Below the pieces are notes generated by a model. That model was given only the letters and a program-made list of their open reading frames with translations, was not told the DNA's origin and did not search any database. Position numbers and translations under genes: made by a program. Shown here in pieces: positions 13,750 to 37,666 of a stretch of DNA of 38,310 bases (the stretch's first letter is position 1; every line of letters starts with the position of its first letter). This DNA is from a virus, in the IMG/VR virus record IMGVR_UViG_3300017749_001886, positions 1 to 38,310 of that record; one strand, 5' to 3'.

Positions 13750-13778
13750 ATTATACAATATTTATACGCCATTGTCAA
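13750..13778 (-). promoter_or_regulatory. near-consensus host promoter for uvsX, with TATAAATA in the spacer
   Basis: TTGACA (13773-13778), exactly 17 bases, then TATAAT (13750-13755). The -35 overlaps the last codons and TGA of the methyltransferase gene (GCTTGACA). The spacer contains an exact TATAAATA (13759-13766), which may be a second, late start or chance. Confidence 0.85.
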
Positions 13779-15082
13779 GCAAAAAATTCATCTAAAGTTG
13801 CTTTTCTAGAATATCTAAACAAGTCTAAATCTTTGTCGCCGAAGCACCAGACATTCTCGATAAACATTTTATTCATATTCTCATCTAGTTTCTCTTTACT
13901 AAAGTTACCATCTTCATCTTTGAATACTGCCTTACCTTGTGGGCGTTGCATAATTCTCATACCGATTTGACCTAAGAATTTATCTTTCAGATGATTTACT
14001 AATTCATCGCCAGAACGATATCTTGTACCTTTGATTTTAGGATCCATAATATTACAGAACATAAATCTAGATACTTTCATACTTTTTTCTGCAACTGGTA
14101 AATAGAAATCATCACGCCATTTCTCATACTCATTGAACTTAAACCAAGATTGATTTTCTTCTAACTCACCACCTTTGTTATATTCTTCGGTAGAGAAGTA
14201 AGGCGGACTTGTAAATGCAACATCTATTGCTGGTAGTTTATCATAAGGTATATCCTCTGCACCACAATTCCATATCTGAACTTTCTTAGGTTTAGGTAAT
14301 AGTTTATTATAAGTAGAAATCTGTTCTTGATATCTTTGATATGTATTTGGATTAGGATCACAACCATAGTATTCTTCAGCATCGCTGGCAAAGAAACCTG
14401 CAAGTCTATCACCCCAACCACAACTTGTATCGAGAACTCTTTTAGCGTCTGTAATATCATAGATTGCTTTTGCAACTACTGGTTTAAATTGTGTTGCAAT
14501 ATATGTACCTAATCTAAACGCTGATATATAACTCTTTTCATTCAACTCACCACCGATCAATTCTTCTTTACCCTCGATCATAACTTTCTGAACACCATTG
14601 ATACCACGCCAGATAGGACCAAAACACTTCCAGATATCTTTTGCTGTGCCATTCTCCCATACTTCTTTCGGTGCTCTAAATCCATAACTACCACATTCTA
14701 ATCTCAAGTCTTGATGAAAATAATTTGATACATCATTAAATGTACTAGCACCATTTATCAGACCAAGACCATATTGTGAATATGGATATTCATAGTCATC
14801 ATATTTTTCATAGACTTCTTTTTCGATTTGCTCTTGTGGAATACAGATTGTATTAGTATTAAACTTCTTTAATTTACCGAAACTATCTCGCATATCATCA
14901 TACGAAATTTCTTTCAAAGGAAATACAGGTCGTTCAGTTGCTATGTATTCAGCAAGGGTTTCTCTAAAGATTTCTTTACCGTACTGAGCGTTCAGTAATT
15001 CAAACGACTTGTTATCTAAGATAGGTAGTTTACCGTCATTAGCGGCGTCTAGAAGGCGTTTATATAGTGTTTTATCGACCAT
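13775..15082 (-). CDS. DNA methyltransferase (TSPPY amino-MTase) with large N-terminal domain
   Basis: 435 residues. Motif I (SAM binding) is VLDTSCGWGDR at 216-226, followed by an acidic strand end YYGCDPNPNTYQRY. Motif IV is TSPPYF at 291-296, typical of N6-adenine/N4-cytosine methyltransferases that act on exocyclic amino groups. The N-terminal 200 residues, without a known motif, may be the target-recognition part. The same arrangement (PSMGYGGR then TSPPYF) is found in the 360-residue protein at 29620-30702, so the two look like distant paralogs. Ribosome site GGGAG. The target sequence is unknown; no cognate restriction enzyme is adjacent. Confidence 0.85.
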   Translation of the reverse strand: MVDKTLYKRLLDAANDGKLPILDNKSFELLNAQYGKEIFRETLAEYIATERPVFPLKEISYDDMRDSFGKLKKFNTNTICIPQEQIEKEVYEKYDDYEYPYSQYGLGLINGASTFNDVSNYFHQDLRLECGSYGFRAPKEVWENGTAKDIWKCFGPIWRGINGVQKVMIEGKEELIGGELNEKSYISAFRLGTYIATQFKPVVAKAIYDITDAKRVLDTSCGWGDRLAGFFASDAEEYYGCDPNPNTYQRYQEQISTYNKLLPKPKKVQIWNCGAEDIPYDKLPAIDVAFTSPPYFSTEEYNKGGELEENQSWFKFNEYEKWRDDFYLPVAEKSMKVSRFMFCNIMDPKIKGTRYRSGDELVNHLKDKFLGQIGMRIMQRPQGKAVFKDEDGNFSKEKLDENMNKMFIENVWCFGDKDLDLFRYSRKATLDEFFA

Positions 15083-17698: not shown

Positions 17699-18745
17699 TT
17701 AATTATTCCACACTTCACGATTTTGTAGTTTTACGAGAATCTTCTCGACTATACTACCTTCAGTTTTTAATGCTTCTTCAATACCGATTAAACCTGGCGT
17801 TGAATTAACCTCAATAAAATGTGGACTATCTTTTTCTCTATTCTTTGCAGGAATAAAATCAACTCCAACAATCACACCTTCAACTGCCTTGGCAGCTCTA
17901 AGTGATTCTTCTGCCTCTTTAGCAGTAAGTTTATGTGTCGTTGGTTCAGAACCTTGTGATACATTACTTCTAAAATCACCCTCAATAATAGGTCGTTTCA
18001 TTACACCTATGATTTCTTCACCACAGATAATTACTCTTACATCATACTTTGTTGGTAGTTTCTCTTGTAGAATAATATCTATGAATTCATTTTCTCTATA
18101 CAATAACTGTACGATTGATTGGCAAGAAGCAGCACTCTCTACTAGAATAACACCAACACCTCTTGAACCAGAACCTGTTTTCAAGATGATAGGAAAATCA
18201 CTATCTAATTCTTTTAGTGCATTTTCTGATCCTTCTGAATGTAATACACGAACTGTTTTAGGTGTGTTTATTTTATTTCTCTCAAAGATAATCTGATTCA
18301 TCCATTTGTCTGAACATATATCATGGCATTCTGCTGAATTGATAACTGCAAAACCTCTATGTTCAAGGTCTTTTGTCATAGCATACCAAGAACGATTACC
18401 ACTTACACCAGGAGTACCTAATCCTCGTATCATTATGATTGTATTTTTAGCATCAATCTCAAATGGTTTATCGTAAACAATATCTTTTTTAGGATCAGGT
18501 TCTGCAACTGCACCACCTTTTTCAACAGGAAAACTATTCATGTATAGTTTATCATTTTCTTCACTAACAAAAGCACCTATGAACTCGGCAAGTAATACTT
18601 TAATGCCTAGTGCTTTAGCTTTCTCTCTTATTAGATCACCTGTCTTATTAGGGTCGTCAGCGTCATCATGGGAAAGTATAACCAAACGATATGGTTCTTC
18701 TACTTTCTCCTCAGAAATAAATTCTTTAAACTTCGGTGCCTTCAT
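17699..18745 (-). CDS. RimK-like ATP-grasp ligase with capsid-leader-like N-terminus
   Basis: 348 residues. ATP-grasp enzymes join a carboxylate to an amine via an acylphosphate; RimK adds glutamates to the C-terminus of ribosomal protein S6. Visible: an N-terminal Rossmann-like part; FPIILKTGSGSRGVGVILVES (ATP-binding Lys and Gly loop, in pieces FPIILKTGS and GSRGVGVILVE); LQEKLPTKYDVRVIICG; and metal-binding HFIEVNSTPGL near the C-terminus. The start MKAPKFKEFISEE contains E-F-I-S-E, matching E-F-I-A-E of the T4 head leader shifted by two residues. It sits between regA and the polymerase gene, where T4 has no such gene, and overlaps regA by 20 bases. The protein substrate is unknown. Confidence 0.8.
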   Translation of the reverse strand: MKAPKFKEFISEEKVEEPYRLVILSHDDADDPNKTGDLIREKAKALGIKVLLAEFIGAFVSEENDKLYMNSFPVEKGGAVAEPDPKKDIVYDKPFEIDAKNTIIMIRGLGTPGVSGNRSWYAMTKDLEHRGFAVINSAECHDICSDKWMNQIIFERNKINTPKTVRVLHSEGSENALKELDSDFPIILKTGSGSRGVGVILVESAASCQSIVQLLYRENEFIDIILQEKLPTKYDVRVIICGEEIIGVMKRPIIEGDFRSNVSQGSEPTTHKLTAKEAEESLRAAKAVEGVIVGVDFIPAKNREKDSPHFIEVNSTPGLIGIEEALKTEGSIVEKILVKLQNREVWNN

Positions 18746-19157: not shown

Positions 19158-19540
19158 TTTGTCCCACCTTTGAATAACTTTTCTTTAATTAATTTAATTT
19201 GTTCCTTGGTGAGTATATCAAGAGCGGACTTTGCCTTCTCATTATTATATCCATAATACTCTTTTACACACTCAATGTCTTTCAATTTAGACGCTCTAAG
19301 AAAAGGACTAAACCTCTTCTTCGCTCTAATACTATTTAGTAGAAATTGGAATTGCATATCTTTATCTAAGAAGTGATTACGATTTACTTCATTAGCAAGC
19401 ATTACAGTATCAGAAAAACCTGATAATATCTTATTGACTATAAATGTAGGATACTTTTTGACCCAGTCTTTATCTTCTGAATCCATTAGATTCTTCTTTG
19501 TAAAGTTTATAGCATTTAAATATTCTTTTAATTCATACAT
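19154..19540 (-). CDS. 62: clamp-loader small subunit, T4 gp62
   Basis: 128 residues. With gp44 it forms the ATPase that loads the gp45 clamp. The sequence (MYELKEYLNAINFTKKNLM, KYPTFIVNKILSGF, ANEVNRNHFLDKDMQFQFLL) matches the marine T4-like gp62 pattern, shorter than T4 gp62 (187). It has no ATPase motif, as expected for this subunit. The start overlaps the stop of the methyltransferase gene by one base (TAATG). In T4 gp62 directly follows gp44; here a methyltransferase gene and a tRNA lie between. Confidence 0.9.
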   Translation of the reverse strand: MYELKEYLNAINFTKKNLMDSEDKDWVKKYPTFIVNKILSGFSDTVMLANEVNRNHFLDKDMQFQFLLNSIRAKKRFSPFLRASKLKDIECVKEYYGYNNEKAKSALDILTKEQIKLIKEKLFKGGTK

Positions 19541-20316
19541 TATAATATCTTTGTTATTTTTTCATTTGCAAACTTACAATAATCTTGATCTATCTCACAA
19601 CCAACATAATCTAAATTATAATGTTTAGCAACAACAGCTGTTGTACCTGTTCCCATAAATGGATCGAACACAACTCCTTTTTTCAAACCAGATACTTTCA
19701 AACATTTCTCAACTAAAGTTTCTGGATAAATTGCTGGGTGTTTATTGCTACCTGCAATCTCTTTTGTTATCTCTTTTGTTGCTTTACTTTTGTATGTAAT
19801 ATGCCAACAATTTGTAGTTGCTCTATAATTTTTACCACTTCGTTTTGCATTTCTTTCTGCATTATTATAATCCTCATTGTAAGGTACACCCGACCATTCT
19901 ATATCGATAGGTGTATTACCATTCTTTGTAAAATGAAATAAATGTTCCCAACCATTTTGCAAATATCTTTTACTTGAATGTGGTGTGCTATAACCTCTTA
20001 CTCTACCATCAATCTCTACTGCCTTTGCCCATATAATATTATTCTGTAATAGCCATGGCACATTTTCTGCAACTTTATATGTATCAAAAGGATTGTCTTT
20101 AGAATATCCTAAATTTAAAAATAAATGACCATCTGGTTTTAATACTCTACAAACTTCACTCCATACATCTTTCATCCACTCTATATAATCAACTCTTGTA
20201 TCCTCATATTTACTATATCTAACTCCTAGATTATACGGTGGACTAGATATACAAACATCAAAAGATTCGTCTGGTGTTGTTTCTAAAAATTTTAAACAAT
20301 CTATATTATGTATCAT
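19540..20316 (-). CDS. DNA methyltransferase (SSPPY, N6A/N4C type) inserted between gp44 and gp62
   Basis: 258 residues. The catalytic motif SSPPYN is at 24-29 and the SAM-binding motif DPFMGTGTT at 218-226. This order (catalytic first) is that of the beta class of amino-methyltransferases such as CcrM-like and restriction-associated enzymes. GWEHLFHF and HPAIYPETLVEKCLK are also typical. The gene follows the tRNA-Thr by nine bases and has no strong ribosome site. Its placement, with the tRNA, inside the otherwise conserved clamp-loader operon suggests later insertion. The target sequence is unknown. Confidence 0.9.
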   Translation of the reverse strand: MIHNIDCLKFLETTPDESFDVCISSPPYNLGVRYSKYEDTRVDYIEWMKDVWSEVCRVLKPDGHLFLNLGYSKDNPFDTYKVAENVPWLLQNNIIWAKAVEIDGRVRGYSTPHSSKRYLQNGWEHLFHFTKNGNTPIDIEWSGVPYNEDYNNAERNAKRSGKNYRATTNCWHITYKSKATKEITKEIAGSNKHPAIYPETLVEKCLKVSGLKKGVVFDPFMGTGTTAVVAKHYNLDYVGCEIDQDYCKFANEKITKIL

Positions 20317-27102: not shown

Positions 27103-29457
27103 TTAAGCAACTTGTGTAATAAACTTATTCATTACTATTCTTGAAGAACGATTTGATTTTAGATTTTGTGTAAACAATCTCTTAATCTCACCTTTCTTAG
27201 CATTATCAGATGGTGTTGCCATTTGACCATCTGTAATTTTCATATCATCTCCAGCAAGGAGATAAAATTCGTCATAACCTGTATTTTCTTTTACAACTAA
27301 ACATTTATTTTTTCTAAACTCTGCCATAACTTTTGGTCTATCAAAGACTTTTGTATTATTGTCATAGTGATTATACTGAGGAAAGTATTTGTCTAAAGTA
27401 TATCGGTCAAGTCTTTTTGTACCCGAGATAAAGAAACCAGTAAGAGTAGTACCAGTATGATCTTTCAATGCCTGTAATAATGACTCTGTCATACCGTCTC
27501 GGTAATTACTATTTGAGTTATAGTTTTTCTTATTTGATTTATTTCTTAGAATAAGATTTGAGTCATAACTAAAAGACGAACAATAATTGCCGTCATCATC
27601 TGTACTCCATCGTCCAGTATTTAATTCTTGTCTTTCTTCTGCTTCTTCTTTACTTAAAATTATATATTCATTACCATCAGAACAACCATCAGTCAAGAAA
27701 ATTGTATTCATCTTATCAATTGAATATTTGTTTTGAAACTGAGGTACCATTGTCATAGCAGCAGCGATTGTACAATTTAATGGAGTAGAACTTAATCCAT
27801 AACCTTGAGGTATTTCTAATGCATAAGTTTTCCATGCGTCATTCGTATCATCATTATACCCTCGATATCTTCTACTACCCATATAATCTTCATACTTAAT
27901 ACTAACACCATAAAGATTTGACATCGCCTCTTCATGTTCTTTAGCAGTCATTCTGGAAGAAGCAAAATTGATTAGTTTTAAATATGAATCTATTGTTAGA
28001 TCGCCTGGTTGATACTTAGGTTTTTTAGATCGAGTATCAGGTTCATCAGACCAACTATATCTTCCTTGACGACCAGAGTTAGAAAATGCATATACTTCAT
28101 AAGGTATATTTACTTTTCTACAAAACATAACCAGGTTCATTAACTGGTGAATAGTCGGTGTAAGTTTATCTGCCATACTGCCTGACCAGTCAATAAACAT
28201 CATCATACCGTGGTTCTTACCATCAGGAGTAATTGTCAATCTTTTAAAGATATCGTCATTGTATTTGTAAGAATGTAATTTAAGAGGATCAACAACGCCA
28301 GACTTATCTTGTTTTGATCTAGTGTAAGCAGTAGCGGCCTTCTTCATTTCAAATTCTTTGACCATGTAATTAACTGATTTACTATTTGATCTTTGAAACT
28401 TTTTGTATTCAGCAATTAAAGTTGGATAAGACGATTTATAAGAACTGCCGTAAGCACTATCTTCTCTGAAACTATTAAATCTAGCAGATTTAAAATCTGA
28501 TAATACAGTTTTATAATCTAAAATGAAGTCTTTTATATTTTTAAACTGGTGAATATTTGCATAAACATTATCTTTACATTTTTCATCAATAAGTTTATCT
28601 TTATTATCTTCCCAATAGTTATCAGTTTCAGCAGATGGTTTGTATTCAGTACTTTCACCCTCATCAATATTTTGTTGACCTCTTTGACCAGTAGTTTCGC
28701 CATCATTATCTGAATCTGAATCTTCATTATCATCTGAATCATCATCTGAATATTTTGATTTGCCACTCTCATCTGAATCTTCATCATTGTTATCGGTGTT
28801 ATCTGAATCTGAATCTTGATAACCTGAATCTTCATCATCATAATCTTCGGTATCTGCCATATCGTGTTGGTCAAGACCTTTTGTTTCTGCCTCGTCTTTA
28901 CAATATTCTGATAACTCTCTAGCAAGAACTACAACATCATTAAAAGTTTCTAGATTTTCCATCTTCTTAACTATTAACTGTTCGGCAGTTGTGAATTCTA
29001 CATCTGATTTTACAATCGAAGTTTTGAAATGCATATTTAATCTATCAATCAAAAGCATTTGGTTGACATCTTTATCTTTAGTACCGAAGAAATTGTTATC
29101 AATTAATTCTCTATAACCGTTTACGAATGATCTAACGATACCTGGATATTTTCTTTTAACTAATTTTTCGATACGAGCATCCTCAATAACATTTAAGAAT
29201 GAATGTGGAAGACCTTCATCTAAAGCAGATTTCCATTCGTCTAAGTGTGTATATAAAGCATGACCGATTTCGTGTGCAACTAATAGGTCGATAATATCAT
29301 TTGACATATGTTTCCATATAGGAAGAGTAAGTACTCTATTCTTTACATCAAAAGAAGCAGTCTTAACTTTTCTATGAACGACTGTTAGATTTTCAGTAGC
29401 AAGAAGATTCGCAAGATAACTCTTTGCTTCTGTATTGATAGTATTTTTCTTTGTCAT
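27103..29457 (-). CDS. cobT: CobT-like protein: gluzincin-type HExxH domain, acidic linker and VWA domain
   Basis: 784 residues from the ATG at 29455-29457. The N-terminal domain has HEIGH at 62-66 and NVIEDARIE (88-96), a plausible third zinc ligand, like gluzincin peptidases. A highly acidic Asp/Ser/Asn/Glu linker spans about 201-252. The C-terminal VWA domain has the MIDAS motif DWSGS (422-426) and later FLTDGCSDG. VWA proteins of this type partner MoxR/CobS AAA+ ATPases. The acidic stretch before a VWA recalls CobT and ChlD, but the HEIGH domain is a peptidase feature, so a phage-specific AAA+/VWA protease or remodeller is as likely as a cobaltochelatase. The -10 lies eight bases before the ATG. 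Confidence 0.8.
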   Translation of the reverse strand: MTKKNTINTEAKSYLANLLATENLTVVHRKVKTASFDVKNRVLTLPIWKHMSNDIIDLLVAHEIGHALYTHLDEWKSALDEGLPHSFLNVIEDARIEKLVKRKYPGIVRSFVNGYRELIDNNFFGTKDKDVNQMLLIDRLNMHFKTSIVKSDVEFTTAEQLIVKKMENLETFNDVVVLARELSEYCKDEAETKGLDQHDMADTEDYDDEDSGYQDSDSDNTDNNDEDSDESGKSKYSDDDSDDNEDSDSDNDGETTGQRGQQNIDEGESTEYKPSAETDNYWEDNKDKLIDEKCKDNVYANIHQFKNIKDFILDYKTVLSDFKSARFNSFREDSAYGSSYKSSYPTLIAEYKKFQRSNSKSVNYMVKEFEMKKAATAYTRSKQDKSGVVDPLKLHSYKYNDDIFKRLTITPDGKNHGMMMFIDWSGSMADKLTPTIHQLMNLVMFCRKVNIPYEVYAFSNSGRQGRYSWSDEPDTRSKKPKYQPGDLTIDSYLKLINFASSRMTAKEHEEAMSNLYGVSIKYEDYMGSRRYRGYNDDTNDAWKTYALEIPQGYGLSSTPLNCTIAAAMTMVPQFQNKYSIDKMNTIFLTDGCSDGNEYIILSKEEAEERQELNTGRWSTDDDGNYCSSFSYDSNLILRNKSNKKNYNSNSNYRDGMTESLLQALKDHTGTTLTGFFISGTKRLDRYTLDKYFPQYNHYDNNTKVFDRPKVMAEFRKNKCLVVKENTGYDEFYLLAGDDMKITDGQMATPSDNAKKGEIKRLFTQNLKSNRSSRIVMNKFITQVA

Positions 29458-29465
29458 ATACACTT

Positions 29466-29619: not shown

Positions 29620-30702
29620 TTACTTTTGAAAGATAAAAGTAGGTTCAAATTTACGACCTGTAATATCAGGTCTAGTAAATTCACCCATATATTGTTGCTT
29701 TTGTTTGGTTTCTTGTATATCACCATCTATTGTTGATACAGCAGAACCCCCTTGTTGAGTCGATAATGATAACCACCAAGTGTCTGTATGTGTGAAACCT
29801 ACTGATTTTGCAAGGGAAACTGTATCCTCTTCAAATGTCTTATATTGTTTAGTGTTAGCAACATTCAATGCTAAGTACTTACCGTCCCTAAGACCCTTAT
29901 ATGCGTTGCTAATCGTCTGTTTTAAGAACATTTCTTTCCATGTATCAGAGGTTTCGAACTTGATACTTGACTGTTCTGGTTCATCACCGTATGCTTCCCA
30001 ACCGAAGTAAGGTGGACTTGTAAATACAAAGTCTAAAGATTGCTCTTCTGGAATGTATGTTTCACTACCTTGTCTTAATAGTGTATATGACTTATGAGAA
30101 TGACCGTATAAATCTCGTATCTGCTCTAACCCTTCATATGTAGGTATACAAGGATCAGTACCGATATAGTTTACACCTGCAGCGATTGCCCCTAGTAAAC
30201 GACCACCATAACCCATACTTGGATCCCATACTGTACCTGCTTCGGTACCTTCAAGTGGACTGTCTTTATCAACAAAGATATCATACATGGCAGCCGCAGC
30301 CGTAGGTCTAAAATTAGATACCATTTGAGTACCTGAATATCGTCTTAACATAGACCTCATATCTGAGTCTGTAATTTCGTGTGCTGGTTTTTGTTTGAAG
30401 AAAGTACCACTAAGTATTTTATTGATACCTTTCTTTAGATGTTCTTCATCATTCCATATTTCAATCGGTGTTCTCATCTTACCACACTTGATACCCCAAG
30501 CGTGTTCCATAAATGACCAAGCAAGATTTAATCCATGTGCTGATTGACCTATAATTTTATTTTTACGATCAACTAATGTATCTCGTCTATAATTTACTAA
30601 CTGATTAAAGATATCGTTTCGCCATTTTGTATCTGTAGGATAGTATGGAAAACCTTTGTCAATCCATTGATCATGGGTTTGTTGTAGTATGTCGTCTGTC
30701 AA
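29620..30702 (-). CDS. DNA methyltransferase (TSPPY type), paralog-like to the one at 13775-15082
   Basis: 360 residues. SAM motif WDPSMGYGGR at 159-168, then YIGTDPCIPTYEGLEQI, and the catalytic TSPPYF at 228-233. Motif order and the flanking pattern (D-P/T-S-x-G-x-G-x-R, acidic strand, TY, then TSPPYF) match the 435-residue enzyme near uvsX; both have a helical N-terminal domain of 150-200 residues. The start appears to be TTG (30700-30702) overlapping the previous stop as TTGA, since no Met occurs until residue 65. The target is unknown. It is last in the modifying-enzyme cassette. Confidence 0.85.
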   Translation of the reverse strand: MTDDILQQTHDQWIDKGFPYYPTDTKWRNDIFNQLVNYRRDTLVDRKNKIIGQSAHGLNLAWSFMEHAWGIKCGKMRTPIEIWNDEEHLKKGINKILSGTFFKQKPAHEITDSDMRSMLRRYSGTQMVSNFRPTAAAAMYDIFVDKDSPLEGTEAGTVWDPSMGYGGRLLGAIAAGVNYIGTDPCIPTYEGLEQIRDLYGHSHKSYTLLRQGSETYIPEEQSLDFVFTSPPYFGWEAYGDEPEQSSIKFETSDTWKEMFLKQTISNAYKGLRDGKYLALNVANTKQYKTFEEDTVSLAKSVGFTHTDTWWLSLSTQQGGSAVSTIDGDIQETKQKQQYMGEFTRPDITGRKFEPTFIFQK

Positions 30703-31505
30703 AATGTTATTCTTTCACCTCTAGGTAAAATTGGTTTCTCAACTTTATTATCTAAACAATCTTTAATTGTTTTTTCTAGATCACTAAAATATTCTACATT
30801 GTTTTCATATGTAAAGTTATAATTAAATGCTGTGTGTTTACCATATGTAACTTTACCTGTTGTCAATAATTCTTCTCTAAAATAACTATCTAATGTATCA
30901 ATATAAGCATGAGATATATTTTTTATATTTTTCATTAATGCATGGTTGTCTAATACACTTGCTCTACTAACTGATATTAATTTGCCTTTAAAATTTGAAA
31001 GTAAATTACTACCGATAAGATAATCATTACCTTCTGGCGGTACAGATACAACTATTGTATTAACTTCATCTGAAACTCTAGTGTGTCGACCTACAATCTC
31101 AACATAGTCTGTATGTTTTACTTTTCTACCTATTGCACCATAACCGATAAGAGCAAGTCTATCAGTATCTTCAATGTATTGATTTATCCAATCGGCAGTA
31201 GATTGAGCAAATGGTTTTGTATTGACAACACCAATGCCTCGTTTCTCACATTCTTCTAAATTTACATTATCAAATCCGTGTTGTCTAACTATAATCCATT
31301 CTAGATTGGGAAATGCTTTGTAAGTTTTTTCGCCTACTTTTGTGAACTGTACTGACAATACTTTTACATTTGGATTTACAAATTGTAAACTATCGTATTG
31401 ACCATGAGATTCCCATTCACATTCATTTAAAAATGTGTCTGGTGCAAACTTGATATCTTTCTTATCTTTTACTACAACTATTGATCTATTCCATATATCG
31501 GTCAT
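30699..31505 (-). CDS. D-2-hydroxyacid dehydrogenase-like protein
   Basis: 268 residues, short for the family (about 310-330). The NAD-binding motif is GYGAIG (121-126). RQHGFDNVNLE (74-84) resembles the conserved R-x-G-x-D-N-I segment; SVSRASVLDNHAL carries the catalytic-region Arg; and KHTAFNYNFTYEN retains a His like the C-terminal TPH motif. The family reduces or oxidises 2-hydroxyacids (SerA, lactate and glyoxylate reductases). The substrate here is unknown. It overlaps its neighbours by four bases on both sides, so it is part of one translationally coupled cassette. Confidence 0.75.
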   Translation of the reverse strand: MTDIWNRSIVVVKDKKDIKFAPDTFLNECEWESHGQYDSLQFVNPNVKVLSVQFTKVGEKTYKAFPNLEWIIVRQHGFDNVNLEECEKRGIGVVNTKPFAQSTADWINQYIEDTDRLALIGYGAIGRKVKHTDYVEIVGRHTRVSDEVNTIVVSVPPEGNDYLIGSNLLSNFKGKLISVSRASVLDNHALMKNIKNISHAYIDTLDSYFREELLTTGKVTYGKHTAFNYNFTYENNVEYFSDLEKTIKDCLDNKVEKPILPRGERITF

Positions 31506-32491
31506 TTTAATCTCTTATTTAATATCATTTCAAATTCTTTATAATAATCTAATTCACTCGGTAGTCTATCCACAAAGTCTTTCTTTATCTTGATTAACCG
31601 TTCATCTGATTTTCTTATCTCTCTTATTTTATCATAAAAATCATCTTTTGTAAAGCACCTCTGCCATTCATCGGTAATCAGTATATTATTTGTATCATAG
31701 TCTTTCCAAACAAACGGAACAACATTACACGCAAGCGCCTCGTGATATCGACCTGTAACCGCTGTTTGATCTATCCAATTAAAACATAAAGTAGATAAAC
31801 TTCTATCTAGATATCCTAATGTATCACCGAGTGTCATCCAGTTTCTTACAATCTTGATAGTCTTTGGCCATCTGCCGATAATTGCTGATGTTATTTCAGG
31901 TTCTCTACTAATATCTTTTATAATATTCGTTCTTTCATCACCAGAGTTTTTGCCGTTGATTGTTTTACTTTTATCAGAACCCCAATATACAAAGTCGGTA
32001 TCTTTGTCAACAGGAAATCTCCACTTATTGTGTATATAATGATACTTCAATCCTTGTAAACACATTGTAAAATCCATTTCATCTATTGTTTGAAATGATT
32101 TTGGTTTTACATGACCTTCGAATGTATAATCTAAAATTAAGTTTTCATCAACACCCCTATCTTGAGTTATTAATATGATATCTTTATTATTTAAATTATC
32201 ATACAACTCTCTAATCCATTGTTGAGACTCTTCTATAACTCTGGGACCTACAGCATTTGTAAAATAGATAAACTCTTGAACGGCAGGAAAAACAATTACA
32301 TCCGCTTCTTTAATTACCTGTTTATCTCTTGTTGCACCTTTTGATCCATAAGCAAAGTTGTAATAAGAGTATTCGTGTTGTGGATTGTTATCTTTATAAT
32401 ATCTAAAAGACTCATAGAATACATCCATACCATATTCTAAAACATCTGTATAATTAACTTTCTTTCTTAAACTTGCAAAACAGATTTTCAT
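31502..32491 (-). CDS. glycosyltransferase-like protein
   Basis: 329 residues. The C-terminal part has GRYHEALACNVVPFVWKDYD (in pieces GRYHEALAC, VVPFVWKDYD), the region that in GT-B glycosyltransferases holds the E-x-x-A-x-G/N-x-x-P donor-binding motif. The N-terminal half (MKICFASLRKKVNYTDVLEYG) is Rossmann-like, with IILITQDRG. Phage glycosyltransferases act on modified DNA bases or surface glycans; which applies is not visible. It overlaps the dehydrogenase and membrane-protein genes by four bases each. Confidence 0.6.
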   Translation of the reverse strand: MKICFASLRKKVNYTDVLEYGMDVFYESFRYYKDNNPQHEYSYYNFAYGSKGATRDKQVIKEADVIVFPAVQEFIYFTNAVGPRVIEESQQWIRELYDNLNNKDIILITQDRGVDENLILDYTFEGHVKPKSFQTIDEMDFTMCLQGLKYHYIHNKWRFPVDKDTDFVYWGSDKSKTINGKNSGDERTNIIKDISREPEITSAIIGRWPKTIKIVRNWMTLGDTLGYLDRSLSTLCFNWIDQTAVTGRYHEALACNVVPFVWKDYDTNNILITDEWQRCFTKDDFYDKIREIRKSDERLIKIKKDFVDRLPSELDYYKEFEMILNKRLK

Positions 32492-32688
32492 GCTCTTCTC
32501 TTTCTAAAAAATCTTCGCCATAATGCTGATCTAGTCATTGAAACACAGGTAAAAATTAATGCAATTTGAAAATTCTCGAAGATTGTAGGGTGTAAACCAA
32601 ATAAAGGAAATATTGTTATCTGAATTGCTACAGATAAAAAGAATCCACTACCTACATCTATTACACTTTCTATTACATCTCTACTCAT
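32488..32688 (-). CDS. small membrane protein (DUF7220-like)
   Basis: 66 residues. Two hydrophobic stretches (FFLSVAIQITIFPLFGL at about 16-32, and FQIALIFTCVSMTRSAL at about 40-56) and a basic C-terminus (WRRFFRKRRA). It matches a widespread small phage membrane family with a PLFGL turn, function unknown. Encoded within the enzyme cassette, overlapping both neighbours. Confidence 0.7.
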   Translation of the reverse strand: MSRDVIESVIDVGSGFFLSVAIQITIFPLFGLHPTIFENFQIALIFTCVSMTRSALWRRFFRKRRA

Positions 32689-33494
32689 ATATTACCTCCT
32701 ATATTCCAAAACAATATATCACCTTTCAAAGACTCAATATTATTTTCTAACCACCACCATGCTTTTCTATCCCAAGTACCATTACAAGGAAAAGGTATTT
32801 CATAATCAATCATCATATCATCAAATTCAAATTCTGTTTTATATACTTCAATAGAACTTGATGACATTGAATGACTCTTATATTTCTCATAGATTGTTTT
32901 TACATTCGATACTGTAATACTATGTGCCTGTTTTTGTGAGTTAGAAAACAAATCATTACCAGGTGAGAATGCCTGAATGATAGGCGAACTGGTCACACCA
33001 GAACCAGCAGATATAACTAAATGATCTACTAGATTTTCTTTAAACACTTCGTCTGCTCTTTGTTTTAAAATAGTACGATAATCAATATGGTCAAACGCAT
33101 ATGGTAACATCTGAATATCTTTTCGTCTTGCATAAGATTGAACTTGAGAATAAAGTATTGCCATCATATTAGGTTTCAATTCATAGAACTCACAATCATT
33201 TTCTTTTGCTTTGTCTAGTATGAACTGACTATATGTTTTCGATGGTGCATATGCATAGATAAACTTTATACCTCGTTGTTTACATAGATAAGACAATGCC
33301 CAACCAGACCAAGAACCATTGACTGCAAGATGTATTAGTGGATAGTTAGGGTTTAAATTTTCTAATAGTCTGTCTATACCTGCCATCTTTCCCCAGGGTG
33401 GTAATGTATCACCATCACCCATAAGGTCATCTCTTTTGACATAAACATTACGATCTTTTAATAAATGTAACTCAACTGGAGTATTTAATCTCAT
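32685..33494 (-). CDS. PLP-dependent enzyme, ACC deaminase/D-cysteine desulfhydrase-like
   Basis: 269 residues, short for the fold II family (about 330). NVYVKRDDLMG (16-26) is a family signature, and K36 in LPPWGKMAGIDRLL is in the place of the PLP-binding Lys. HLAVNGSWSGWALSYLCKQRG corresponds to the substrate/phosphate loop (in pieces NGSWSGWAL). VISAGSGVTSSP resembles the glycine-rich phosphate-binding loop. The C-terminus is truncated relative to the enzymes, so activity and substrate are unclear. Similar genes occur in marine phages. Possible roles are amino-acid metabolism or making a modification precursor. Confidence 0.7.
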   Translation of the reverse strand: MRLNTPVELHLLKDRNVYVKRDDLMGDGDTLPPWGKMAGIDRLLENLNPNYPLIHLAVNGSWSGWALSYLCKQRGIKFIYAYAPSKTYSQFILDKAKENDCEFYELKPNMMAILYSQVQSYARRKDIQMLPYAFDHIDYRTILKQRADEVFKENLVDHLVISAGSGVTSSPIIQAFSPGNDLFSNSQKQAHSITVSNVKTIYEKYKSHSMSSSSIEVYKTEFEFDDMMIDYEIPFPCNGTWDRKAWWWLENNIESLKGDILFWNIGGNI

Positions 33495-34576
33495 CTTAAT
33501 AATATATTTCTAACCTCATCATTTGCCCACACATCTGCAACTAAATGAATACGAATATCATCTCCGCCATTGATTGCTGTATGTGGTCTACGAGTATCTA
33601 GAAACCAACATTCTCCTTTGCCCATATTATATTTGTTTTCTTTGCCATCATTATTCCAAGAAGTAAATACAACTTTATCATTTGTCTTTAATGGCATATG
33701 AAATCTTAACATCTTTCCATTAGTAGTTCCCCATGTAGGGTCCGTTTGATCGGTGTGTCGAGCCAACTCACCTCCTCCTGGTTTCAAAGTCATAAATCTG
33801 ACCCGATCAAACTCGCCTGGTAATTGATTTAAAAAATGATCAACTTTACTTTCTAACTTATCATATAGATCAGTTTTGATAATAGGCCTATCTTCTTTCA
33901 AATCTGCTTTCTTATCTACATAGGTACTATCTTTTTCAAATCCCATTAATGATAATGCCTGCCAAGATTTCTTTTTATTATAATTACTGTTATGATTAGT
34001 ATATTCTAAATTCATAGTAATCAAATCTTCTACTAATTCATCTATAATATTGTGGTCAAACGATAGTGAAGTTTTACACATATTAATATTTTCTGTTTCA
34101 ACAACAGGAATAAATTTTCTACCACCTTTATAATATACACCAACAATATCACTAAATGTACTATACTTAGTTCCTATCTTTCTGAAACCTGACTCAAGAA
34201 CTGCTTCTTTGTGAGTTTGGTTTTCTTCAAAGATATGACACCAAGTTGGTTCATATATTGTTTTAAGTACATTTACTAGATTGTCTTTTGTACCTTTTTC
34301 AAGTATTGATAATTTTGTTATAACTCTTTCGCCTTTATGTATTTCAGCAATCTCTGGTCCTGCACGAAACATTTTTATTTTTGAAGCGGTCTTCGCTGTT
34401 CGCATTTCATATACGATATTACCTGTTTGATATAGATTATCTTTATCTATAGCAGACGCTATACCATTCTTCTTTGCTTTAGTAAATGGACTAAAACAGT
34501 ACTTATTATATTCTTCGAATTTATCTGTCCACTCTAAAAGAGTATCTAATTCAATTCCCTTTTGCCAAGGTTTCAT
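33491..34576 (-). CDS. GNAT-like domain fused to a 2-oxoglutarate/Fe(II) oxygenase (Asp/Asn beta-hydroxylase-like)
   Basis: 361 residues from the ATG at 34574-34576, with GGAG six bases upstream; an ATG four codons earlier lacks a good site. The N-terminal 150 residues read like a GNAT acyltransferase (HKEAVLESGFRKIGTKYSTF, SDIVGVYYKGG). The C-terminal domain has ELARHTDQTDP (HxD iron ligands H274, D276), RRPHTAINGGDD (distal H332) and R342 for 2-oxoglutarate, the pattern of aspartyl/asparaginyl beta-hydroxylases. A link of acyl transfer and hydroxylation in one protein is unusual. The gene overlaps the small unknown upstream by 26 bases and the PLP gene by four. Confidence 0.65.
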   Translation of the reverse strand: MKPWQKGIELDTLLEWTDKFEEYNKYCFSPFTKAKKNGIASAIDKDNLYQTGNIVYEMRTAKTASKIKMFRAGPEIAEIHKGERVITKLSILEKGTKDNLVNVLKTIYEPTWCHIFEENQTHKEAVLESGFRKIGTKYSTFSDIVGVYYKGGRKFIPVVETENINMCKTSLSFDHNIIDELVEDLITMNLEYTNHNSNYNKKKSWQALSLMGFEKDSTYVDKKADLKEDRPIIKTDLYDKLESKVDHFLNQLPGEFDRVRFMTLKPGGGELARHTDQTDPTWGTTNGKMLRFHMPLKTNDKVVFTSWNNDGKENKYNMGKGECWFLDTRRPHTAINGGDDIRIHLVADVWANDEVRNILLR

Positions 34577-34753: not shown

Positions 34754-35428
34754 CTATATTATAATCTTAGGTTTAGAAGGCATCATCGCTTGTTGTCGTG
34801 CTATCTTCTTCACCGCTTTCTTTTGTGCTTTCTTGGCTGTGTCTAGTTTTAATTTACTTACCAAGTCAGTAAATACATATCCGTTCATATGTTCGTTTTC
34901 ATGTTGCCATATTCTTGCTGGCATACCATGTAAATATTCATCAACTTCTTCACCATTCTCATCTGTATATTTAGCATGAACCCATTTAGGTCTTTTGATA
35001 GATAAGAATAAAAATGGAAATGTTAAACAACCTTCTTTCATTAGTATTGTTTCAGGACTTACATCTATAACTTCTGGATTAAAGCAGTATCTAAGTTTAC
35101 CTTCTTCAATCTCTGGATGACCACCCATGACAAACATACGATATGGCAAACCAACTTGATTACAAGATAATCCTATACCACCATAATTATACATTGTATC
35201 TTTCATAACATTACATAAGTCTTGTCTATCTTTAAAGTTAAACTCTTTTAATGTGTCGTCAAAGAAAGGTGCAATCTGCATTAATACCCTAGGATCAGTA
35301 GGTGGTATTAAAGGTAGTATTCTTTTACCATCTTTTTTCTTTTCAATAATAGGTGTCTTTTTACTTTGTAAATTATCAAAGTGTTTTGCTGCTTCTTCTA
35401 TGGTTTCTGCATTTAATTCTTTTGCCAT
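34754..35428 (-). CDS. def: peptide deformylase
   Basis: 224 residues (bacterial PDF about 170). It removes the formyl group from nascent peptides. All three motifs are intact: GIGLSCNQVG (84-93), EGCLTFP (132-138, metal-binding Cys) and QHENEHMNG (175-183, HExxH). An N-terminal extension of about 35 residues and a basic Lys-rich C-terminal tail are extra. Marine phages commonly carry def. The start overlaps the gp46 stop as TAATG. Confidence 0.95.
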   Translation of the reverse strand: MAKELNAETIEEAAKHFDNLQSKKTPIIEKKKDGKRILPLIPPTDPRVLMQIAPFFDDTLKEFNFKDRQDLCNVMKDTMYNYGGIGLSCNQVGLPYRMFVMGGHPEIEEGKLRYCFNPEVIDVSPETILMKEGCLTFPFLFLSIKRPKWVHAKYTDENGEEVDEYLHGMPARIWQHENEHMNGYVFTDLVSKLKLDTAKKAQKKAVKKIARQQAMMPSKPKIII

Positions 35429-37143
35429 TATTCTGCCATCCTTGTAAAGTTTTTATATTTCTCAAATTTCATCACTCTAGGAAATTTGTCTATTAGTGTA
35501 TCACCTTTATGAGATATAACAAATACATTTTCTTTTTCCATTGTGCTGTTTAATATTCTCATAAATTCATCTGTGCCTGAACTATCTAAAGAACTATCAA
35601 ATATTTCATCTAGTATTAATAGATTCGTATTTGTAGAATTCTTTAACTTAGCAATCTCTCGCCAAGTGAATAGTATTGCCAGATCAATTCTTAACTTCTC
35701 ACCCTCACTAAAAGAATGATAGTTAAACACATCACGGTGTCTGGACTTAATTGTTTCATTAAACTCCTCATCAAGAGTAAAGTTAACAAAGAAGTCCATA
35801 TCTGCTAGGTTCTTATTAATATACTGGTTCATTATGGGTAGGTATTGCTTAATGATTTTAGTCTTAATACCAGTATCTTGCATAAGAACTCTAGCAGTAT
35901 CAATATAAAGTTTTTCTTCTTTATATTTCTTTTTATCTAGATCCGCTTGCGTCAGGTTTTCTTGCAGCTGACTTAACTCGCCAGTGGCAACACCTGATGA
36001 AAACTTCTCATCTGATAATTCTTCTATCTCGCTATTAATCTTAGCGATATATTTCTGTATCTCATTTATTGAGGTTTGAAAACGATTGATTAATAACTCT
36101 TGCTCTCTTATTAATACCATCGTATCATTAATCTTTTTCAATCTAGTTTCTGTGGTTGTGATTTCTTTTTCTAGTTGTTGCATGCCACTTTCAATTTCAT
36201 CAACCTTACTTTTTTTCTTATCAATCATTTGAGATTTAAATGCTGAATCTATTGCCTGTTGACAAGTAGGACAATCATCATAAGTTTCAAAGAACTTTAA
36301 ATCTTTCTTATGTTTACTACAAGTATTTTCTAACTTTGCTTCCATTGTATGAAGTTTTTTATATCTCGTATTTACAGCGACCTCATCTAGTATTTGTTTT
36401 TGTAGTTTTGCCTTTTCAATCATAGTGTCATCAATATCTTTTTGATAATTCTTAATATCAGTTTCACTTTTTTTTATATCTAGTTTCTTAGTATCAATGG
36501 ACTCTAAATTATTCTGACTGATTTCTTCAATGTGTTTCTTTTGTGTATCTATTTTACTATCAAGCATTTGATAATCAAAGTCTGCCTGTTTGATAACTTC
36601 ATCTTGTGATTTTTGTTTTTCTCTAAACATTAGGTTCATCTTAGAAAAGATTTCAATGTCTAGTATATCTTCTACAACTTGGCGTCTGTATCTTGCCTTC
36701 AGTTGCATAAATGGTACGAATGAAGCATTACCTAGAATCACAACTTGAGTAAATGATCTAAAGTTTAATTTAAGAATTTGCTGTTCTAAATGTTTCTGAT
36801 AATCTCTAACCGCAGCGTCTTGATTTAGCATATCACCATTACACCATATCTCGAACTTATTAGGTTTGATACATCTGATTATCTTATAATCTTTTTTGCC
36901 GACTGTAAATTCAACTTCAACCACACATTCTTTTTCATTGATTGAATTAATTAATTGATCTTTTTTAATATTACGAAATGGTCTTTGAAATAGACCAAAA
37001 CACAATGCGTCTAACATTGTAGATTTACCAGCACCGTTTTCACCAACAACTAAAGTAGCAGGTGCTCTATCTAGTTGTATCTCTATGAATTGTTGTCCTG
37101 TACTTAAAAAGTTTTTATATCTTACTGTTTTAAATATTATCAA
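35428..37143 (-). CDS. 46: recombination exonuclease subunit, T4 gp46 (SbcC/Rad50-like)
   Basis: 571 residues. Walker A GENGAGKS (34-41); coiled-coil arms; the zinc-hook CPTC (291-294); signature HSFSEGEKLRIDLAI and Walker B LLILDEIFD near the C-terminus. With gp47 it resects DNA ends for recombination-dependent replication and host DNA degradation. The start codon appears to be TTG (37141-37143), with GAGG upstream; the N-terminus (MIIFKTVRYKNFLSTG) aligns with T4 gp46 there, so a later start is unlikely. It overlaps the MT-A70 gene by 14 bases. Confidence 0.94.
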   Translation of the reverse strand: MIIFKTVRYKNFLSTGQQFIEIQLDRAPATLVVGENGAGKSTMLDALCFGLFQRPFRNIKKDQLINSINEKECVVEVEFTVGKKDYKIIRCIKPNKFEIWCNGDMLNQDAAVRDYQKHLEQQILKLNFRSFTQVVILGNASFVPFMQLKARYRRQVVEDILDIEIFSKMNLMFREKQKSQDEVIKQADFDYQMLDSKIDTQKKHIEEISQNNLESIDTKKLDIKKSETDIKNYQKDIDDTMIEKAKLQKQILDEVAVNTRYKKLHTMEAKLENTCSKHKKDLKFFETYDDCPTCQQAIDSAFKSQMIDKKKSKVDEIESGMQQLEKEITTTETRLKKINDTMVLIREQELLINRFQTSINEIQKYIAKINSEIEELSDEKFSSGVATGELSQLQENLTQADLDKKKYKEEKLYIDTARVLMQDTGIKTKIIKQYLPIMNQYINKNLADMDFFVNFTLDEEFNETIKSRHRDVFNYHSFSEGEKLRIDLAILFTWREIAKLKNSTNTNLLILDEIFDSSLDSSGTDEFMRILNSTMEKENVFVISHKGDTLIDKFPRVMKFEKYKNFTRMAE

Positions 37144-37666
37144 ATTTATTTACCTCATTACCAAAGTTATCCCAACCTTTACGAGTCGTTCTTGCAAACA
37201 ATTCTATATAAGGTCCTTCTAACATCTTTTCTATATAACCATACATCTCGTCTGGCTTTCTACTATGTTCTCGTCTTTCTGATACAACCAATTGTCTAAC
37301 TGATTTATCAAATCTTTTTGGTTTACCTCTTGTTGCAAGTAAACACATTTCAGGATTAGATCGTGTCCAGTAACCCATACCTGTAAAATATCCTAAAGAC
37401 TTTTGTTTTGTTTTTACCCAAGTGAAACCTACCGTCTTATAAGTGAAGTTCCAAGATTCCAAAACTTTAAAGGCATCCAATAAACACGGATCAGTAACCC
37501 ACATAAGAAGAACACAATCTTTATCAGCAATACTATCGATATCCATATTACAAATATCGTTAATTGACATACAAGGATAGTGTTGAGTTGCATTTCTGCC
37601 TTCACCTTTTTTAGAATACGATTTAAAATACCATGGTGGGTCTGCATATATTACTTTATATTTCAT
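37130..37666 (-). CDS. MT-A70-family adenine methyltransferase inserted between gp46 and gp47
   Basis: 178 residues. The catalytic motif DPPW (9-12) in KVIYADPPWYF, then FTWVKTKQKSLGYFTGMGYW, NPEMCLLATRG and REHSRKPDEMYGYIE, all typical of MT-A70 enzymes (METTL3-like, bacterial and phage forms methylate adenine in DNA or RNA). It overlaps the gp47 stop as ATGA. In T4 gp47 and gp46 are nearly adjacent, so this is an inserted gene. Confidence 0.92.
   Translation of the reverse strand: MKYKVIYADPPWYFKSYSKKGEGRNATQHYPCMSINDICNMDIDSIADKDCVLLMWVTDPCLLDAFKVLESWNFTYKTVGFTWVKTKQKSLGYFTGMGYWTRSNPEMCLLATRGKPKRFDKSVRQLVVSERREHSRKPDEMYGYIEKMLEGPYIELFARTTRKGWDNFGNEVNKFDNI

What the first reader, a model, noticed from the sequence alone, without database searches (positions are those of the whole stretch)
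29620..34576. Translationally coupled cassette: GNAT-2OG oxygenase, PLP enzyme, membrane protein, glycosyltransferase, dehydrogenase, methyltransferase
Most genes overlap by four bases, so they are made together. PLP enzymes, acyltransferases, oxygenases and glycosyltransferases occur in phage pathways that build hypermodified DNA bases, and also in surface-glycan or small-molecule pathways. No base hydroxymethylase is in the window, so the DNA route is unproven. I know of no described pathway with this set.
Basis: inference. Interest (0 to 1): 0.78.

Follow-up and report, generated by a model that had tools for sequence, protein, structure and literature searches.

The report
Phage DNA-base decorating gene cassette
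A T4-like phage fragment carries a co-inherited, frequently reshuffled enzyme set that most likely decorates the phage's own DNA bases with an amino-acid-like side chain and a sugar, a chemical disguise whose exact structure has not been measured.

Summary
The six overlapping genes are really there: five of five junctions are 4-base overlaps, against 3 of the other 34 junctions. (1) The glycosyltransferase model is closest to the T4 DNA glucosyltransferases (BGT Z 19.9; next non-T4 GT-B 15.3). (2) The PLP enzyme is a full-length relative of the one in the phage M6 thymidine-hypermodification cassette, where it lies directly after an amino acid:DNA transferase. (3) The GNAT-2OG protein has a relative in mycobacteriophage LilMcDreamy, again directly after an amino acid:DNA transferase. 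(4) PLP and dehydrogenase travel as a pair: 42 of 47 dehydrogenase loci have both; in the other five the dehydrogenase lies at the locus end. (5) In distant relatives an asparagine-synthetase-like ligase replaces the glycosyltransferase; a published carboxymethylcytosine system uses that ligase class (PMC12783734). Shown: anatomy, homology, co-inheritance. Inferred: that the substrate is DNA, the order of steps, the product. The base-activating step is unidentified. The small membrane protein is probably a passenger. New variant of a known kind.

The parts
33491..34576 (-). GNAT-like domain fused to a 2OG-Fe(II) oxygenase of the Asp/Asn-hydroxylase family
   Evidence: PF05118 1.2e-12 on residues 194-355; H278, D280, H336, R346 invariant in 24 of 24 rows; model pLDDT 91.3; 2OG domain closest to 7v4m (Z 17.2, 160 aa, 2.9 A) and L-proline cis-4-hydroxylase (Z 16.5); relative LilMcDreamy gp04 E 4.4e-27. 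GNAT half inferred.
32685..33494 (-). Fold-type-II PLP enzyme, relative of phage M6 gp52
   Evidence: phrog_7093 9.5e-26; M6 27% identity over 98%, E 6e-15; K36 invariant in 23 of 23 rows, taken as the Schiff-base lysine by inference.
32488..32688 (-). Small membrane protein DUF7220, probably a passenger
   Evidence: PF23858 2e-19; cluster c5 occurs in loci without the cassette.
31502..32491 (-). GT-B glycosyltransferase resembling T4 DNA beta-glucosyltransferase
   Evidence: Model pLDDT 88.9; the seven best Foldseek hits are T4 BGT/AGT (1j39 E 1.2e-8); BGT Z 19.9 over 296 aa; D111, R248, E251 invariant in 23 of 23 rows; 38% identity to HTVC008M gp104.
30699..31505 (-). Shortened D-2-hydroxyacid-dehydrogenase-like protein
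   Evidence: PF00389 1.1e-10; profile to glyoxylate reductase 2dbq 2.3e-16; G121/G123, R181, H224 invariant in 22 of 22 rows, no conserved catalytic Glu recognised.
29620..30702 (-). SPPY-type amino-group DNA methyltransferase-like protein; constant neighbour of the cassette
   Evidence: N6_N4_Mtase 0.0077, below cut-off; phrog_12517 7.1e-11; Vibrio phage 'N-4 cytosine-specific DNA methylase' 39.5% identity; relatives L090 and L218 exceed the Pfam cut-off.

Best explanation
The cassette is a post-replicative DNA-base hypermodification module. A base of the phage DNA receives a side chain with amino-acid character; the activating or attaching enzyme is not identified (candidates: the neighbouring SPPY methyltransferase-like protein, or an enzyme outside this fragment). 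The PLP enzyme transforms the amino-acid part (decarboxylation or deamination), the dehydrogenase reduces a resulting 2-oxo acid or similar carbonyl, the 2OG domain hydroxylates the side chain, the GNAT-like domain acylates or only binds, and the BGT-like glycosyltransferase caps a hydroxyl with a sugar. In distant relatives an asparagine-synthetase-like ligase appears instead of the glycosyltransferase, plausibly amidating the carboxylate. The likely benefit is resistance to host restriction or other DNA-targeting defence. Shown: the genes, their homologies, fold similarity, co-inheritance and swapping. Inferred: that the substrate is DNA, the order of steps and the product.
For: GT fold nearest to T4 BGT then AGT, ahead of cellular GT-B enzymes; GT motif TQDRG matches BGT FTDIR around D100, and R248/E251 pair with BGT R269/E272 in a weak alignment. 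PLP relative in M6, directly after ADDT (PF18724 1.4e-46) and beside HMUDK, radical SAM and a TS (SN1/M6 cassette described in PMC9476957, whole text read). GNAT-2OG relative LilMcDreamy gp04 directly after an ADDT (2.7e-12). 2OG domain nearest to amino-acid and nucleoside-antibiotic hydroxylases. Slot survey: 65 of 80 examined loci show the slot from gp46 to MT; the other 15 are cut and were dropped. 58 of 65 hold a 2OG and/or a PLP gene; the two co-occur only in the 6 full cassettes, and DH occurs only in those 6. PLP-DH pairing 42 of 47, the other 5 cut short. Operons MT-x-PLP-DH-AsnB-GNAT2OG (L203), MT-AsnB-x-DH-GNAT2OG-PLP (L221), MT-TS-like-AsnB-PLP (L218). The best-scoring phage-collection relative of the AsnB (TurkishDelight gp124) lies between an SPPC C5-methylase and a CmoA-like gene, the arrangement of the 5-glycyl-carboxymethylcytosine system (PMC12783734, parts 1-3 of 8 read).
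Against: No ADDT, HMUDK, CmoA or TS in the window. No ADDT, HMUDK or CmoA match in any cassette-bearing relative searched, including 168.8 and 134.5 kb records for ADDT and CmoA; the only above-cut-off TS-family match among cassette-bearing records is L218. The GT and MT sequence matches alone are below cut-offs, the GT profile has no PDB sequence hit, and its alignment to BGT is not significant by sequence (probability 1.1%). Fold similarity shows no substrate. Some loci carry DH-PLP without GT, AsnB, GNAT-2OG or MT nearby (for example L194), so the pair can work without the rest or with unlinked partners. No chemistry was measured.
Confidence: 0.62

Rival explanations
1. The genes make or modify a small molecule or a surface glycan (an auxiliary metabolic pathway): PLP and dehydrogenase interconvert amino and hydroxy acids, the GT attaches a sugar to a non-DNA acceptor.
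For: DH, AsnB and PLP families are metabolic in cells; GT-B folds are widespread, with many cellular enzymes at Z 13-15; DH-PLP occurs in some loci without an MT gene in view.
Against: GT nearest to T4 DNA glucosyltransferases; PLP and GNAT-2OG relatives adjoin amino acid:DNA transferases; a DNA-methyltransferase-like gene flanks every variant of the gp46 slot examined (loci were chosen by that gene); almost no bacterial DH relatives (2 partial hits).
Confidence: 0.17
2. Unrelated morons in a hypervariable cargo slot: each gene has its own function and they are together by chance and recombination.
For: The slot between gp46/PDF and MT is highly variable, and 2OG, GNAT, PLP and GT each occur there without the full set.
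Against: PLP-DH pairing in 42 of 42 loci not cut short, in different gene orders; full sets recur in distantly related phages outside this slot (L042, L090, L203, L221).
Confidence: 0.13
3. The module modifies RNA or protein (for example a tRNA or a ribosomal or phage protein).
For: GNAT, 2OG, methyltransferase and amino-acid transfer enzymes also serve tRNA and protein modification (recalled); the window has a RimK-like ATP-grasp ligase.
Against: The GT is BGT-like, the PLP relative belongs to a described DNA cassette, and the GNAT-2OG relative adjoins an ADDT and a weak Tet/JBP-like gene (PMC9476957).
Confidence: 0.08

Closest known systems
5-(2-aminoethyl)deoxyuridine (5-NedU) thymidine hypermodification of Pseudomonas phage M6/YuA/SN1
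   Same: Homologous PLP enzyme (27% identity, 98% coverage); amino-acid chemistry on a base expected.
   Different: No ADDT, HMUDK or TS found in the window, no radical SAM gene noticed there; dehydrogenase, GNAT-2OG fusion, BGT-like GT and SPPY methyltransferase have no counterpart annotated in the M6 region examined.
T4 DNA beta-glucosyltransferase (BGT) system
   Same: Fold and likely active-site Asp/Arg/Glu; both in T4-like phages.
   Different: 13% identity; no gp42-type hydroxymethylase in the fragment; accompanied by amino-acid-type enzymes instead.
CmoA-CmoX-CmoY 5-glycyl-carboxymethylcytosine system (Synechococcus phage S-B43, PMC12783734)
   Same: Methyltransferase-like gene near an asparagine-synthetase-like ligase in distant relatives of the cassette.
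   Different: Methyltransferase is SPPY amino type, not C5 SPPC; no CmoA in the records searched; window itself has no AsnB; PLP, DH and GNAT-2OG extra.
LilMcDreamy gp02-gp04 (weak Tet/JBP-like, ADDT, GNAT-2OG)
   Same: GNAT-2OG relative aligned over 252 columns, reaching into the N-terminal half.
   Different: Has an ADDT; the 10 annotated genes in the stretch fetched include no PLP enzyme, DH or GT by name. No modification reported in what I saw (one paper, listing only).

Membership tests
M6-type thymidine hypermodification | PLP enzyme of the phrog_7093 / M6 gp52 family | tested here: met
M6-type thymidine hypermodification | Amino acid:DNA transferase (ADDT, PF18724) | tested here: inconclusive
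   0 in the window and 0 of 20 records; M6, LilMcDreamy, L228 and L232 ring; the window is a fragment
M6-type thymidine hypermodification | 5-hmdU DNA kinase helical domain (PF18723) | tested here: inconclusive
   1 of 24 records, only the M6 control; the window is a fragment
M6-type thymidine hypermodification | TS-family hydroxymethylase (PF00303) | tested here: inconclusive
   none in the window; one cassette relative, L218, has an above-cut-off match between MT and AsnB
T4-type DNA glucosyltransferase | BGT/AGT-like GT-B fold | tested here: met
T4-type DNA glucosyltransferase | BGT D100, R269, E272 equivalents (roles recalled) | tested here: inconclusive
   D111, R248, E251 invariant in 23 of 23 rows; pairing rests on motif and a non-significant alignment
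T4-type DNA glucosyltransferase | Transfers glucose to a hydroxylated base in DNA | not testable with these tools
   needs an assay
CmoA-CmoX-CmoY system | C5-cytosine methylase with SPPC motif as the neighbouring methyltransferase | tested here: not met
   cassette MT has SPPY and matches N6_N4_Mtase models, weakly in the window; methyltransferases elsewhere in the phage were not all examined
CmoA-CmoX-CmoY system | CmoA (TIGR00740) | tested here: inconclusive
   0 of 24 and 0 of 9 at E 0.001; control TurkishDelight rings at 1.3e-26; the window is a fragment
2OG-Fe(II) Asp/Asn hydroxylase family PF05118 | Family score and HxD...H iron ligands | tested here: met
   48.4 bits against cut-off 22.6; H278, D280, H336 invariant in 24 of 24 rows
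D-2-hydroxyacid dehydrogenase | Catalytic and NAD domains | tested here: met
   PF00389 41.7 bits over cut-off 24.6; PF02826 23.2 just under 25.1, supported by the profile match to glyoxylate reductase 2.3e-16
D-2-hydroxyacid dehydrogenase | Catalytic Arg-Glu-His triad (recalled) | tested here: inconclusive
   R181 and H224 invariant in 22 of 22 rows; no conserved Glu recognised
GNAT acyltransferase | Fold and acyl-CoA motif | tested here: inconclusive
   order of secondary structure fits; weak profile match to the stand-alone GNAT; no clear acyl-CoA loop seen by eye; domain not searched alone
Amino-group DNA methyltransferase PF01555 | Family score | tested here: inconclusive
   window MT 16.6 bits against 26.7; relatives L090 27.2 and L218 29.9 pass

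The most novel reading that the evidence does not exclude
The SPPY 'methyltransferase' does not methylate: it transfers an amino-acid-bearing group (for example the 3-amino-3-carboxypropyl arm of SAM itself) to an exocyclic base nitrogen of DNA, and the PLP, dehydrogenase, GNAT-2OG, AsnB-like and BGT-like enzymes then sculpt that side chain. This would be a DNA-hypermodification route that needs neither a hydroxymethylated base nor carboxy-SAM.
Probability: 0.12. Interest if true: 0.93.

Novelty: new variant of a known kind. Interest (0 to 1): 0.72.

Why it matters
If right, environmental T4-like phages carry a modular base-decoration system in which a BGT-like sugar transferase, an amino-acid PLP enzyme, a hydroxyacid dehydrogenase and an amino-acid hydroxylase act on DNA. 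It ties three separately described chemistries (M6 amino-acid thymines, T4 glucosylation, CmoY-type amide ligation) into one swap locus and names two isolated phages, HTVC008M and LilMcDreamy, whose virion DNA could be tested directly.

Tried and rejected
Rejected: the methyltransferase and the DUF7220 protein as cassette-specific members. Rejected as a full label: 'M6 pathway', 'T4 pathway' or 'Cmo pathway', because partner enzymes are missing or different (Membership tests). Led nowhere: PDB sequence search with the GT profile and with the TS-like protein of L218 (two weak unrelated hits); window MT against the PDB (one weak hit at 0.81); bacterial genomes with the DH profile (310 pattern hits, 2 partial relatives); the DH in the phage collection (none); a viral scan with LilMcDreamy gp04 (only the phage itself); contexts of the MT relatives in Staphylococcus/Mammaliicoccus and Bacteroides phages (no cassette gene named); Limnohabitans phage DC33 2OG context (all hypothetical). 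VIA rows for the GNAT-2OG model covered mainly residues 141-361, so the N-terminal half is untested. Both structure predictions went to GNAT-2OG and GT; PLP, DH and MT were not modelled.

Literature: ten searches in a CC-licensed PMC library gave no listed paper describing this gene set; this does not show that none exists. The key papers on thymidine hypermodification (PMC8989533, PMC5889632), PMC3763556 and PMC11472151 are not held, so their content is recalled only. Read: PMC9476957 whole text; PMC12783734 parts 1-3 of 8; passages of PMC6449724, PMC11946847, PMC9599517.

Weak points in the counts: one search used 78 of the 80 loci (L095-L172) plus L005 and L017, leaving out L004; 15 of these 80 were dropped from the tally because gp46 is not in view. 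Loci overlap in contigs and are not independent. In one search the PLP model missed 3 of 9 M6-type loci and the 59-residue fragment in L225. Clusters are single-linkage.
Full report
What is there. On the minus strand between the gp46-type nuclease gene (35428-37143) with its following peptide deformylase (34754-35428) and the gene of a phage peptidase family (27103-29463) lie six genes: GNAT-2OG, PLP enzyme, DUF7220 membrane protein, glycosyltransferase (GT), dehydrogenase (DH), methyltransferase (MT). All five junctions overlap by four bases, against 3 of the other 34 junctions in the window. The window is a 38.3 kb virus record from a T4-like phage related to Pelagibacter phage HTVC008M: gp46 51%, gp47 51%, the peptidase 36%, and the GT 38% over its full length, in HTVC008M directly after gp46.

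Is it a unit? Scans of the viral collection gave relatives of each gene. The MT is a near-constant gene of the clade (104 relatives, best 80 kept). In 80 examined loci, 15 do not show gp46 and were dropped; of the remaining 65, 31 have a 2OG gene and 33 a PLP gene between gp46 and MT, and both only in 6 loci, which are exactly the 6 that also have DH. In 24 of the 65 a stand-alone 2OG gene stands with a small GNAT gene; in the window the two functions appear fused. GT accompanies PLP in 22 of the 65 (11 + 5 + 6), plus 2 with a different GT. So the slot swaps sets beside the MT: 2OG+GNAT, or PLP(+GT), or the full window set. 7 of 65 have neither this 2OG nor PLP: 4 with a second methyltransferase, 3 with the GNAT and another 2OG family.

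The tightest link is PLP with DH. With a DH profile, 42 of 47 loci also hold the PLP gene; in the other five the DH reaches the end of the locus or nearly so (L011 ends 44 bases later). With a PLP profile, 63 loci were found: 54 window-type and 9 M6-type. DH is in 43 of 54 window-type and 0 of 9 M6-type loci. Of the 11 without DH, ten have the PLP gene or its partner at a locus end; L218 is a clear absence nearby. GT occurs in 15 and an asparagine-synthetase-like (AsnB) gene in 18 of the 54, never both. Distant operons read MT-x-PLP-DH-AsnB-GNAT2OG (L203), MT-AsnB-x-DH-GNAT2OG-PLP (L221), MT-TS-like-AsnB-PLP (L218), MT-HNH-PLP-DH-MT-AsnB with GNAT-2OG further on (L042), and MT-ThiS-GNAT2OG-DH-PLP-GT (L090). 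Order changes while the set persists, which argues for joint function. Against: some loci have DH-PLP alone in view (for example L194, L010), there followed by a ThyX-like gene by eye in L009 and L014.

What the proteins are like. GT: AlphaFold model from 23 rows (pLDDT 88.9); Foldseek's seven best PDB hits are T4 BGT and AGT; VIA-align gives BGT Z 19.9 (296 residues, 3.7 A, 13% identity), AGT 16.4, and the first non-T4 GT-B enzyme 15.3. An invariant Asp-Arg after a strand (TQDRG) matches BGT's FTDIR with D100 by motif; the sequence alignment pairs R248/E251 with BGT R269/E272 but is not significant. PLP: full-length relative of M6 gp52, whose neighbours are ADDT upstream and radical SAM, HMUDK domains, Nmad5 and a TS downstream, the cassette described for SN1/M6 in PMC9476957. 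In Pseudanabaena phage Pam3 the PLP relative lies in a similar annotated cluster. GNAT-2OG: 2OG domain nearest to a nucleoside-antibiotic beta-hydroxylase and L-proline cis-4-hydroxylase; in LilMcDreamy the relative directly follows an ADDT. DH: recognisable 2-hydroxyacid dehydrogenase with conserved Arg and His, no conserved Glu recognised. MT: SPPY amino-methyltransferase type, weak in the window, above cut-off in relatives.

Why DNA. Three cassette families point to DNA by independent lines: the GT by fold, the PLP enzyme and the GNAT-2OG protein by their neighbours in other phages. The AsnB-like ligase of the distant variants adds a fourth: its best-scoring match in the phage collection (93% covered, 33% identity) is TurkishDelight gp124, flanked by a C5-methylase with an SPPC motif and a CmoA-like gene, the arrangement that PMC12783734 shows to make 5-glycyl-carboxymethylcytosine. 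[quoted passage not shown] the present MT is of the amino type and CmoA is absent from all 24 and 9 records searched, so a different donor would be needed.

What is missing. No ADDT, HMUDK, TS or CmoA in the window; ADDT in 0 of 20 and in 4 of 10 records (M6, LilMcDreamy, L228, L232; no DH was found in these); HMUDK 1 of 24, the M6 control; TS above cut-off in 0 of 20 and 3 of 9 (M6, L232, L218). Fragments cannot prove absence. So the first step on the base is open: an unlinked enzyme, host supply, or the MT itself (the section on the most novel reading).

Verdict. As a type it is a new variant of phage DNA hypermodification.

Noticed in passing
L090:5263-5514: ThiS/MoaD-like sulfur carrier (PF02597 1e-11) ending in GG, inside the MT-GNAT2OG-DH-PLP-GT operon; hints at a sulfur step in one variant.
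   Followed up: partly
L218:5814-6500: Divergent TS-family gene (PF00303 over cut-off) between an SPPY methyltransferase and an AsnB-like ligase, next to the PLP gene, in a 168.8 kb record.
   Followed up: partly
L104:7590-8231: ThyX-like gene (by eye) inserted between PLP and GT in one cassette; a ThyX-like gene also follows PLP in L009 and L014.
   Followed up: no
L243 (TurkishDelight gp121-gp125): ParB, ParB, SPPC C5-methylase, AsnB-like, CmoA-like: looks like a CmoA/X/Y system in a Streptomyces phage.
   Followed up: partly
window 13775-15082, 19540-20316, 37130-37666: Three further methyltransferase-like genes (weak N6_N4, N6_N4 4.1e-47, MT-A70 7e-33), so this fragment holds four.
   Followed up: partly
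window 17699-18745: RimK-like ATP-grasp ligase (PF08443 9.5e-31) near the DNA polymerase; amino-acid ligase of unknown target.
   Followed up: no
L042:9490-9993: HNH endonuclease gene between the methyltransferase and the PLP gene.
   Followed up: no
L228: Relative of the PLP enzyme with radical SAM and an ADDT, in a record other than the close M6 group; an intermediate cassette worth reading.
   Followed up: no
L158, L161 (cluster c22): A different, 465-residue glycosyltransferase-like gene takes the GT position beside PLP and MT.
   Followed up: no
L001:13569-14711 (HTVC008M gp106): Looks by eye like a DUF4338/Druantia-type protein in the homologous slot; label recalled, not searched.
   Followed up: no
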